Of a DNA stretch of 64,000 nt, positions 41,094 to 43,302 are shown in pieces; position 1 is the stretch's first letter, and every line of letters starts with the position of its first letter. This stretch comes from Streptomyces brevispora (GTDB taxonomy: Bacteria; Actinomycetota; Actinomycetes; Streptomycetales; Streptomycetaceae). The notes beneath the pieces are model-generated. The model was not told the DNA's origin and searched no databases. It worked only from the letters and a program-made list of their open reading frames with translations. The DNA lies in assembly GCF_007829885.1 (NCBI RefSeq), contig NZ_VIWW01000002.1, positions 186,001 through 250,000 on the forward strand, given 5' to 3'. The position numbers and the translations under genes are program-made.

Positions 41094-41230
41094 TGGCTAG
41101 CCCGCTCAAAAAATCCCTACGGCAAAACCGATGTGATGAATACAGTGGCCCTCAGATTCATGCACCTCCCGGTGCGCGGGGTCCGCCTACTTCTTCCAAG
41201 CGCCCGGCGGCCCCGTTCCTGATCTCGGGA

Positions 41231-41426
41231 GGCGCAGCATCGGGGTGCCCGGTGCGCAGGCGACGGATACTTCTCCGACTGAGACCGACCGGCAACTGAC
41301 GGCCGGTCCACGAGAGGACCCGGGTTCGAATCCCGGCCGCCGTTCCACGGACCGACGGTAGCTCAGCGGCCCAGAGCACTATGTCTCCGTCACCGATTCT
41401 GATCTCGGGCACCCCATCGCTGAGCT
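41231..41426 (+). ncRNA. Putative Y RNA (YrlA-like) with a permuted tRNA-like module
   Basis: Ends: GGGGTGCCC (41242-41250) pairs with GGGCACCCC (41407-41415), extended outward by CAGC/GCTG across an ATC/ATC internal loop. A second helix joins GGCGACGGA (41259-41267) to TCCGTCACC (41386-41394) with one mismatch. Inside lie a 7-bp hairpin (41287-41308), a perfect tRNA T-arm (stem CCGGG/CCCGG, loop TTCGAAT, 41320-41336), an acceptor-like stem (41337-41343 with 41352-41358, 5 of 7 pairs), TA, and a perfect D-arm (GCTC-AGCGGCCCA-GAGC, 41361-41377). The T-arm precedes the D-arm, so this is a circularly permuted tRNA mimic, as described for bacterial YrlA RNAs bound by Rsr. The Rsr gene starts 25 nt downstream. 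The exact ends are uncertain. Confidence 0.75.
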
Positions 41427-41427
41427 T

Positions 41428-41444
41428 CCCCTCCATGCGAGGGG
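41428..41444 (+). promoter_or_regulatory. Hairpin that enfolds the ribosome-binding site of the Rsr gene
   Basis: CCCCTC-CATGC-GAGGGG is a perfect 6-bp hairpin followed by TTCTTC and then the ATG at 41452. GAGGGG is also the best ribosome-binding site for that ATG, so folding would hide it. The hairpin with its T-rich tail could also be the Y RNA terminator. Both roles are inferred. Confidence 0.55.
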
Positions 41445-41451
41445 TTCTTCC

Positions 41452-43077
41452 ATGTCCCGCTTCAACAAGCTCGGCACCCGTCCCGCCGCTGCCTCGGCCG
41501 TGCGGACCACGGGCATACGCACCAGCACGGCCAAGGGCGCCACCGGCTATCTCCGGGACGCCAAGTCCGAACTGTTCCTGCTGGCAGTGACCAACTTCGT
41601 CGCGCAGGACACCTTCTACGAGCGGGGCGGCGAGCGCGACGACCGCTACACCCAGCTCGTCCGCAAGCTCGCGGTGGAGGACCCCGAGTGGGTGGCCGGC
41701 CTGCTGAAGTGGCTGCGCGGCGAGGGCAACATGCGTACCGCCGCCCTGGTCGGTGCGGCCGAGTTCACCACCGAACGCCTCCTGCGGGAGGCGCCCGGCC
41801 ACTCCCGCCAGGTCATCGACTCGGTACTCCAGCGCGCCGACGAACCGGGCGAACTGCTGGCCTACTGGACGTCGAAGTACGGCCGCCGGCTTCCGAAGCC
41901 CGTCAAGCGCGGCATCGCCGACGCCGTGCGGCGCCTCTACGACGAGCGGGCCCTGCTCAAGTACGACACCGGCTCCAAGGGATACCGGTTCGGCGACGTC
42001 CTCAACCTCGTCCACCCCAGCCCGGCGAACGACAGGCCGTGGCAGGGAGACCTGTTCAAACACGCCATCGACCGGCGCAAGAACCGGGACGAGGAGATCC
42101 CGCACCTTCTCCACACGCTGCGCGCCCGCGACTCTCTGATGAAGATGCCTGTCGAGGACCGCCGCGGCGCCCTCGGCGACCCGGACGTCACGGACCTGTT
42201 CAACGAAGCGGGCATGACGTGGGAGGCACTGGCCGGCTGGCTCCGGGGCCCCATGGACGCGGCGGCGTGGGAGGCGGTCATCCCGTCCATGGGGTACATG
42301 GCGCTGCTCCGTAATCTGCGGAACTTCGACGAGGCGGGGGTCGGCGACGACGTGGCGGAGCAGGTGGCGAAGCGGCTCTGCGCCCCCGAGCGGGTGGCCC
42401 GGTCCCGGCAACTGCCCATGAGGTTCTACTCCGCGCACAAGGCCGCACCGTCCCTGCGCTGGGGGCACGCCCTCGACAAGGCGCTCACCGCCTCGCTCGC
42501 CGGCGTTCCGCGGCTGGACGGCCGGACGCTGGTCCTCGTCGACACGTCCGCCTCGATGGACGAGGCTTTCTCCCGTGACGGCTCACTCATGCGCTGGGAC
42601 GCCGCAACCGTCTTCGCCATCGCCCTGGGGCGCCGATGCGCACAGGCCGACGTGGTCTCGTTCTCCTCCACCCGTGAGTACTGGGACCAGCCGCCCGGTG
42701 CGAGGACGAAGGCGTTTCCGCTCGCCCCCGGTGGATCCCTCCTCGGCGATGTCCGGAAGTGGAAGGACGGGGGATGGTTCCTCGGAGGAGGCACCGACAC
42801 CGCCCTGGCCCTCCGAGAGACGTTCCGCGACCACGACCGAGTCGTCGTCATCACCGACGAACAGGCCGGTCACGACGGCCAGGAGGTCACCGAGGCCGTT
42901 CCCGGGACGACACCGATGTACACCTGGAACCTCGCCGGGTACGAAGCCGGGCACGCCCCGTCCGGCCGCGCCCGGCGGCACACCTTCGGCGGACTCACCG
43001 ACCAGGCGTTCCGCATGATTCCGCTCCTCGAAGCCGGGCGGGACGCGGCGTGGCCGTGGGAAGTCGCGGTCGCGTGA
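41452..43077 (+). CDS. rsr: TROVE-domain protein, bacterial Ro60 ortholog (Rsr)
   Basis: The 541-residue protein has the N-terminal TROVE helical-repeat ring (GYLRDAKSELFLLAVTNFV, then HSRQVIDSVLQRADEPGELL) and a C-terminal von Willebrand A domain with the metal site DTSAS (364-368) and VVVITDEQ. Ro60 proteins bind misfolded and Y RNAs and, in Deinococcus, work with PNPase in RNA decay. The adjacent Y RNA candidate supports a functional Ro ribonucleoprotein. The stop codon lies inside the first copy of a 29-bp tandem repeat. Confidence 0.93.
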   Translation: MSRFNKLGTRPAAASAVRTTGIRTSTAKGATGYLRDAKSELFLLAVTNFVAQDTFYERGGERDDRYTQLVRKLAVEDPEWVAGLLKWLRGEGNMRTAALVGAAEFTTERLLREAPGHSRQVIDSVLQRADEPGELLAYWTSKYGRRLPKPVKRGIADAVRRLYDERALLKYDTGSKGYRFGDVLNLVHPSPANDRPWQGDLFKHAIDRRKNRDEEIPHLLHTLRARDSLMKMPVEDRRGALGDPDVTDLFNEAGMTWEALAGWLRGPMDAAAWEAVIPSMGYMALLRNLRNFDEAGVGDDVAEQVAKRLCAPERVARSRQLPMRFYSAHKAAPSLRWGHALDKALTASLAGVPRLDGRTLVLVDTSASMDEAFSRDGSLMRWDAATVFAIALGRRCAQADVVSFSSTREYWDQPPGARTKAFPLAPGGSLLGDVRKWKDGGWFLGGGTDTALALRETFRDHDRVVVITDEQAGHDGQEVTEAVPGTTPMYTWNLAGYEAGHAPSGRARRHTFGGLTDQAFRMIPLLEAGRDAAWPWEVAVA

Positions 43078-43168
43078 ACCGGACCCACGGCGTCGCGGTC
43101 GCGTGAACCGGACCCACGGCGTCGCGGTCGCGTGAACCGGACCCACGGCGTTCCGGTCGCGTGAACCG
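43063..43168. repeat. 29-bp tandem repeat at the 3' end of the Rsr gene
   Basis: Three exact copies of the unit starting GTCGCGGTCGCGTGAACCGG lie at 43063-43091, 43092-43120 and 43121-43149, followed by a partial copy to 43168. The last five Rsr codons and the stop are in copy one, so the array arose by duplication of the gene end. Confidence 0.92.
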
Positions 43169-43302
43169 CTGATCAGCACCTCTGCCGACGCGGCCCCGTT
43201 GACGCCCGGACCGCGCAACCACGCCTCGGCCAGGCGCTCGGAGGGACGAAAGCGTTCGGACAGTGCGGTCCAGGGCTCCCGGTCGGCATCGGTCTCGGCC
43301 AT
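43150..43302 (-). pseudogene. N-terminal gene fragment fused into the repeat array
   Basis: A minus-strand frame from ATG 43302 reads MAETDADREPWTALSERFRP then SERLAEAWLRGPGV with strong G/C third positions, then runs into the tandem repeat and on antisense to the Rsr gene. The first ~50 codons look like a real gene start whose remainder is lost. Family not recognised. The rest of 43169-43458 holds nothing else I can support. Confidence 0.35.

What the first reader, a model, noticed from the sequence alone, without database searches (positions are those of the whole stretch)
41231..41444. Unannotated Y RNA with a circularly permuted tRNA module directly upstream of a Ro60/Rsr gene
A perfect tRNA T-arm (41320-41336) and a perfect D-arm with GG in its loop (41361-41377) occur in reversed order, joined by an acceptor-like stem. 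The anticodon position opens into two long-range helices (41242-41267 with 41386-41415). Published bacterial YrlA RNAs have this tRNA-mimic architecture and bind Rsr. Here the RNA candidate lies 25 nt from a TROVE gene on the same strand. An additional 7-bp hairpin (41287-41308) is larger than I would expect and may be a lineage-specific module.
Basis: partly seen in the sequence, partly recalled or inferred. Interest (0 to 1): 0.85.

Follow-up and report, generated by a model that had tools for sequence, protein, structure and literature searches.

The report
tRNA-mimicking Y RNAs beside Ro60 gene
Just upstream of a bacterial Ro60 (Rsr) gene this Streptomyces genome encodes two Y RNAs that the standard RNA library does not call; one of them contains a transfer-RNA-shaped module with its parts in circularly permuted order, and its relatives across actinobacteria often carry a complete tRNA mimic including the anticodon arm, which described bacterial Y RNAs appear to lack.

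Summary
The finding is real and its reading is right, but incomplete. The T-arm, D-arm, long helices and extra hairpin lie exactly where stated. A covariance model built without the window finds the element at 84.8 bits (next best in the window 15.1). On 55 relatives 97.3% of pair cells are standard pairs and 21 of 31 pairs show double changes. Rfam YrlA scores it 25.3 bits (cut-off 69) and calls none of 20 relatives, though one sub-threshold relative reaches 55.9 bits.

New here: (1) a second, shorter Y RNA without tRNA module (41159-41241) lies directly upstream; arrays such as tRNA-like/short/tRNA-like are usual. (2) Short-unit matches occur in 93 of 96 rsr-bearing genomes, 4 genomes with rsr relics, and none of 88 without rsr. 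(3) About half of 276 related units contain an anticodon arm (5 bp, 7-nt loop, usually CUNNUAA): a whole tRNA permuted at nt 28/29. In the window this loop is expanded to 36 nt and holds the 'extra hairpin'. (4) The module's tRNA type switches repeatedly. (5) Unlinked copies sit between metK and priA.

Best reading: an actinobacterial Y RNA subfamily partnering Rsr; a new variant of a known kind. Transcription and binding are untested.

The parts
41118..41146 (+). Predicted promoter: TACGGC, 17 nt, TACAGT, with an A-rich stretch upstream
   Evidence: Positions; matching -10 (TASNGT-like) and -35-like elements with upstream A-run stand before the first unit of the arrays shown. The generic sigma-70 scan finds nothing. 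Inference.
41159..41241 (+). Short Y RNA without tRNA module: outer stem CCTCCCG/CGGGAGG, GGTGCG core, inner stem and loop, TGATCTC
   Evidence: Model R2: 76.6 bits, E 3.6e-13 in the whole genome (C2:227159-227241; the window was in the training set). Alignment and pairs.
   Evidence: Leave-one-out model R3: 84.8 bits, E 2.6e-18; covariation of relatives.
41242..41251 (+). 5' strand of the outer stem, paired with 41406-41415; followed by the invariant core GGTGCG (41251-41256)
   Evidence: 10 of 10 pairs; helix 1, 97.1% paired.
41262..41267 (+). 5' strand of the inner helix, paired with 41386-41391
   Evidence: helix 2, 97.6% paired, 5 of 6 pairs with double changes.
41273..41275 (+). tRNA positions 29-31 (CTC), paired with 41312-41314 (GAG, positions 39-41)
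   Evidence: relatives vary CCA/TGG, CGA/TCG, CCG/CGG, CTC/GAG, CCT/AGG.
41276..41311 (+). Expanded anticodon loop (36 nt in place of 7) holding the 7-bp hairpin 41287-41308
   Evidence: relative L006 with the same D-arm has CTC-CTGCTAA-GAG at this place (alignment).
41315..41316 (+). tRNA positions 42-43 (AG), paired with 41379-41380 (CT, positions 27-28) that follow the D-arm
   Evidence: compensatory changes at both pairs in relatives.
41320..41336 (+). T-arm
   Evidence: helix 3, 100% paired.
41337..41360 (+). Acceptor-like stem closed by a loop; weak in the window
   Evidence: R3 alignment; helix 4, 94% paired, 6 of 7 pairs with double changes.
41361..41377 (+). D-arm; loop AGCGGCCCA
   Evidence: helix 5, 100% paired.
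41400..41415 (+). TGATCTC core and 3' strand of the outer stem
   Evidence: TGATCTC-type core conserved in the aligned units.
41428..41444 (+). Leader hairpin CCCCTC CATG CGAGGGG whose 3' arm holds the likely ribosome-binding site of rsr
   Evidence: Sequence; function inferred, conservation not tested.
41452..43077 (+). rsr, TROVE/Ro60-family protein, 541 aa
   Evidence: Pfam TROVE 58.6 bits; profile matches 9l5y/9kop 8e-44 and Ro60 1yvp 2.4e-11.

Best explanation
The stretch 41159-41421 encodes two Y RNAs that partner the Rsr (Ro60) protein of the next gene. The first is a short stem with loop; the second carries a tRNA-shaped module with its parts in circularly permuted order. Both have the same core, GGUGCG facing GAUCUC in an interrupted stem, which I take to be the Rsr-binding site. 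The two RNAs and rsr are probably transcribed together from one promoter near 41118-41146 and cut apart later. By analogy with YrlA and the Deinococcus Y RNA, Rsr holds the stem while the outer module controls access to Rsr and tethers a nuclease such as PNPase, or recruits tRNA-acting enzymes. Shown here: sequence, structure by covariation, distribution, linkage. Inferred: transcription, processing, Rsr binding, PNPase tethering. In many relatives the module is a whole tRNA, anticodon arm included, permuted between nt 28 and 29; in the window the anticodon loop is expanded by a hairpin.
For: Covariation: 97.3% of cells paired against 81.9% in shuffles and at most 51.5% in slid controls; score 0.412 against 0.147; 217 double-change cells against 56. 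Leave-one-out model finds the window element at 84.8 bits. The same units lie upstream of rsr in most sampled loci of other actinobacterial genera and families (named genera include Kitasatospora, Streptacidiphilus, Nocardiopsis, Amycolatopsis, Actinoallomurus). 82 of 86 main-clade Streptomyces rsr loci have a T-arm upstream by the script's count, at least 48 have two; the element order is regular. Short-unit matches: 93 of 96 rsr genomes, 4 with rsr relics, 0 of 88 without rsr. Sub-threshold homology to Rfam YrlA up to 55.9 bits over the full model. Anticodon arm. Published role of YrlA: PMC8394870, PMC7790460.
Against: No transcript data. The lone-sequence minimum-energy fold does not form the whole tRNA-like module. 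Rfam's YrlA model does not call it at its cut-off. No separate promoter or terminator is seen for each RNA, so the units could stay parts of the rsr leader. No rtcB/rtcA genes are evident in the part of the neighbourhood read, unlike the Salmonella operon.
Confidence: 0.88

Rival explanations
1. A cis-acting leader of the rsr mRNA: Rsr binds the repeated stems in its own 5' untranslated region and controls its own expression; the structures need not exist as free RNAs.
For: Units lie in the rsr leader on the same strand; one shared promoter-like element upstream of the first unit; the hairpin 41428-41444 overlaps the likely ribosome-binding site.
Against: Copies of the short unit between metK and priA, unlinked to rsr, four of them followed by a tRNA-like unit. 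A tRNA-like module is not needed for autoregulation. YrlA precedents are free RNAs (PMC8394870). Both roles may coexist.
Confidence: 0.1
2. Remains of ordinary tRNA genes, or a junction between two neighbouring tRNA genes, that imitate a permuted tRNA.
For: Such a junction really imitates the Rfam YrlA model in this genome: tandem tRNA-Asn genes, 38.4 bits.
Against: ARAGORN finds no tRNA here; the flanking helices covary; the unit recurs at the same place in genera far apart; stem changes keep pairing.
Confidence: 0.01
3. The tRNA-like module acts mainly as bait: it presents an anticodon arm to tRNA-modifying enzymes or anticodon nucleases, and Rsr binding is only the scaffold. (This adds to the best explanation rather than excluding it.)
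For: 88 of 276 units have the loop YUNNUAA after a 3-bp stem, 0.005 expected in shuffles; U33 and A38 nearly fixed while 34 and 35 vary. The competitor idea was raised for YrlA in PMC7790460.
Against: No partner enzyme is known; about half of the units, and the window's own unit, lack a 7-nt loop; no experiment.
Confidence: 0.2

Closest known systems
YrlA (Rfam RF02553; Salmonella enterica, crystal structure 6CU1)
   Same: Encoded next to rsr; ends form a long stem; tRNA-like module in circularly permuted order with T-arm, acceptor-like stem and D-arm.
   Different: Scores 25.3 bits against a cut-off of 69. In the Rfam consensus the anticodon stem runs straight on into the long stem; many relatives of the window element have a whole anticodon arm there, and in the window its loop is expanded. 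Unit about 174-183 nt here; published range 90-150 (PMC8394870).
YrlB of the Salmonella rsr-yrlBA-rtcBA operon
   Same: A second Y RNA gene beside yrlA and rsr (PMC7790460).
   Different: I could not compare sequences. Here the short unit lies between tRNA-like units or before one, and no rtcBA is evident nearby.
Deinococcus radiodurans Y RNA and vertebrate Y RNAs
   Same: Ro60/Rsr-bound stem; from memory the vertebrate core (GGUCCGAAGG ... UUGAC) resembles GGUGCGAAGG ... UUGAUC here.
   Different: No Rfam hit to those families even at E up to 10.
tRNA-like domain of tmRNA
   Same: T-arm; a weak Rfam match here (15.9 bits).
   Different: tmRNA is not circularly permuted in this way and has no Rsr stem; the match covers the T-arm only.

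Membership tests
Bacterial Y RNA (Rsr-associated) | Gene next to rsr on the same strand | tested here: met
   class-wide.
Bacterial Y RNA (Rsr-associated) | Long stem formed by the two ends, conserved by compensatory change | tested here: met
   Helices 1 and 2.
Bacterial Y RNA (Rsr-associated) | Binds Rsr and is stabilised by it | not testable with these tools
   Only co-occurrence with rsr was measured.
YrlA type | Circularly permuted tRNA-like domain with T-, acceptor-like and D-arms | tested here: met
YrlA type | Rfam RF02553 gathering score (69 bits) | tested here: not met
   Window 25.3 bits; 0 of 20 relatives called; best relative seen 55.9 bits. Hence filed as a Y RNA subfamily outside the Rfam YrlA model.
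YrlA type | Anticodon stem opens into the Rsr stem, no anticodon loop | tested here: not met
   About half of related units have an anticodon-type hairpin; in the window it is present with an expanded loop.
YrlA type | Carries tRNA-type modifications (dihydrouridine, pseudouridine) | not testable with these tools
   Needs RNA.
TROVE/Ro60 (Rsr protein) | TROVE domain above the curated cut-off | tested here: met
   58.6 bits against 23; solved TROVE/Ro60 chains.
Ordinary tRNA gene | D-anticodon-T order and acceptor stem of the two ends | tested here: not met

The most novel reading that the evidence does not exclude
Actinobacterial Y RNAs contain complete tRNAs, anticodon arm included, circularly permuted at nt 28/29 and grafted on a Ro60-binding stem. 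The grafted tRNA type is exchanged repeatedly in evolution (Leu-type class II, initiator-Met-like, Glu-like, Met/Ile/Lys/Asn-like), and the module presents an anticodon loop to modification enzymes or anticodon-cutting nucleases as a sensor or bait, with Rsr as carrier. (The structural half of this statement alone I rate at about 0.75.)
Probability: 0.25. Interest if true: 0.8.

Novelty: new variant of a known kind. Interest (0 to 1): 0.58.

Why it matters
Bacterial Y RNAs have been studied in only a few species, and why they imitate tRNA is open. Streptomyces and its relatives offer a natural series: units with and without the tRNA module side by side, modules of different tRNA types, some with an anticodon arm, unlinked copies, and genomes where rsr decayed. 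That makes the purpose of the mimicry testable by swapping or deleting single modules in laboratory strains. It also shows that Rfam's YrlA model does not call these RNAs at its cut-off in the loci tested.

Tried and rejected
Rfam at gathering score: no hit in the window region nor in 20 relatives. Rfam YrlA over the whole genome: best hit is the junction of two tRNA-Asn genes, so a bare YrlA score near 25-38 bits proves nothing; this is why own models were built. Model R1 over the phylum: most hits outside Streptomyces around E 1e-5 match only the tRNA part and were set aside. Consensus scan for sigma-70 promoters and terminators: none. Assigning the window module to one tRNA: inconclusive (D half best Val, T half Thr/His; the D-loop AGCGGCCCA looks Glu-like by eye). 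First Rsr tree: half of the proteins were read on the wrong strand; discarded and redone. In one search the stem columns of the anticodon arm were indexed one off; one search has the right ones. The key paper (Chen 2014, PMC4201824) is not held, so whether it lists Streptomyces or anticodon arms could not be checked; no held paper found by the searches joins Y RNA, YrlA and an anticodon loop in this sense.

Full report
Observation. The gene that follows, 41452-43077, is a TROVE/Ro60 protein (Pfam 58.6 bits against a cut-off of 23; a profile of 15 relatives matches solved TROVE chains at 8e-44 and Ro60 at 2.4e-11). The last helix base is 36 nt from its ATG.

Is it more than chance? Rfam alone does not say so: YrlA scores 25.3 bits here, while the junction of two tRNA-Asn genes elsewhere in the same genome scores 38.4. 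I therefore used comparison. Of 199 Streptomyces genomes, 96 have a strong rsr match. In 82 of 86 main-clade rsr loci a T-arm with nearly all five pairs lies in the upstream region, in at least 48 there are two. Fifty-five units aligned and folded give 31 pairs, 21 with changes on both sides; with that structure 97.3% of cells are standard pairs, the covariation score is 0.412 against 0.147 in shuffles and at most 0.093 in slid controls. These controls do not fully correct for relatedness. A model built from 38 relatives without the window scores the window element 84.8 bits, E 2.6e-18, with the next match at 15.1 bits.

A second Y RNA. The comparison showed a shorter unit of the same kind directly upstream, 41159-41241, with the core GGTGCG and TGATCTC but a plain loop in place of the tRNA module. 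Its pairs vary less, so its covariation is modest: 7 of 17 pairs with double changes. The arrays follow a pattern: tRNA-like, short, tRNA-like, rsr in the largest group; short, tRNA-like, rsr, as in the window, in the next. Model R2 of the short unit rings in 93 of 96 genomes with rsr, in four genomes that hold only rsr relics beside it (G066, G125, G170, G186), and in none of the 88 genomes without any rsr match. Physical linkage accounts for much of this, but not for the copies far from rsr.

Unlinked copies. In the window's own genome R2 also finds a unit at C1:270715-270819 (52.1 bits, E 1.2e-7), between metK and priA. Eight more genomes have one at the same place; in four of them a tRNA-like unit follows at 62-77 bits. 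All nine genomes have rsr. G065 has a further array away from its rsr. The second rsr paralogue has a short unit of its own upstream.

Distribution. In the rsr loci of other families of the class the models find one to several units in most loci, up to 119.9 bits, and named loci from Nocardiopsis, Amycolatopsis, Streptacidiphilus, Kitasatospora and Actinoallomurus match. Rfam's YrlA model calls none of 20 loci at its cut-off, but below it reaches 55.9 bits over the whole model in one relative, so homology to YrlA is likely.

A complete tRNA. Over 276 distinct tRNA-like units, 142 have a 3-bp stem with a 7-nt loop directly after the conserved TACTT; shuffles give 22 on average, 40 at most. In 88 the loop reads YUNNUAA, against 0.005 in shuffles. 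Among 88 distinct segments chosen by length alone, the two variable stem pairs are paired in 84 and 80 cases against 55.6 and 55.7 in shuffles, and sliding by one to three columns drops pairing from 94.7% to at most 55.7%. Loop position 33 is U in 83 of 88, 38 is A in 80, while 34 and 35 vary. The letters after the D-arm pair with the two letters that follow this hairpin, again with compensatory changes (C-G 100, G-C 10 and rarer). In tRNA numbering this is the anticodon arm: pairs 27-43 and 28-42 use one end of the module, 29-41 to 31-39 the other, so the permutation point lies between nt 28 and 29. The published description of YrlA lists D-, T- and acceptor arms only (PMC8394870), and the Rfam consensus has no loop there.

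The window's own module. All 37 pairs of this model that I wrote out are standard pairs in the window: 27-28 = CT at 41379-41380, 42-43 = AG at 41315-41316, 29-31 = CTC at 41273-41275, 39-41 = GAG at 41312-41314. The loop between them has 36 nt and contains the 7-bp hairpin. Relative L006 with the same D-arm has CTC-CTGCTAA-GAG there. The spacing in the window is the longest of 123 modules, 50 nt against a median of 23. I read the extra hairpin as a genome-specific insertion into the anticodon loop, probably without a conserved role. The minimum-energy fold of the lone sequence beats the tRNA-like fold by 12 kcal/mol.

Change of tRNA type. In the unit next to rsr the D-arm is of a generic type in 40, of tRNA-Leu type in 22 and of initiator-Met type in 2 of 69 loci; in four units the D half matches a tRNA of this genome, tRNA-Leu in three cases that are listed, in 20 of 20 letters. 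On the Rsr protein tree the Leu label needs 14 changes, at least 6 forced by well supported branches (quick search, so approximate). Replacement of the module, or exchange of whole loci between strains, could both explain this.

Mechanism. Literature: Salmonella encodes rsr with YrlB and YrlA (PMC7790460); the Y RNA stem binds Rsr and the tRNA-like domain is reported to bind PNPase (PMC8394870); in Deinococcus this specialises PNPase for structured RNA (PMC7790460). I infer the same division of labour here: core stem for Rsr, outer module for a partner. The shared promoter-like element before the first unit suggests one transcript with rsr, cut into units. None of this is shown for Streptomyces.

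Verdict. The element works like, and most likely is, a bacterial Y RNA of YrlA type, in an actinobacterial subfamily that Rfam's model does not call and that differs in having arrays, unlinked copies and, in about half of the units, an anticodon arm. A new variant of a known kind.

Noticed in passing
Own genome C1:270715-270819 (L181 1501-1605, minus strand), between metK and priA: An orphan short Y RNA unlinked to rsr; the same place is occupied in eight more rsr-bearing genomes, in four of them followed by a tRNA-like unit.
   Followed up: partly
Upstream of the second rsr paralogue, e.g. G162:C1:469100-469187, G101:C1:8776090-8776178: A second clade of rsr has only a short Y RNA with a variant core (GATGCG) and no T-arm upstream in nearly all loci sampled.
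   Followed up: partly
G066, G125, G170, G186 (L226-L229): Decayed rsr genes with a Y RNA still beside them; natural cases of a Y RNA without its protein.
   Followed up: partly
Rsr-proximal units, e.g. L062, L064, L075, L082 (Leu type), L010 and L036 (initiator-Met type), L225 (Glu-like, unlinked): The tRNA-like module resembles different tRNAs in closely related genomes, including class II tRNA-Leu with a long variable arm.
   Followed up: partly
L081 (G032), unit at -240: The acceptor-like loop has grown by a short tandem repeat (TGTGTCAGAATTC-like units).
   Followed up: no
window 43060-43170: A repeat of about 30 bases (GTCGCGTGAACCGGACCCACGGC) in three to four copies directly after rsr.
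   Followed up: no
G000:C1:1484393-1484505: The junction of two tandem tRNA-Asn genes scores higher than many true Y RNAs with the Rfam YrlA model: a trap for annotation.
   Followed up: yes
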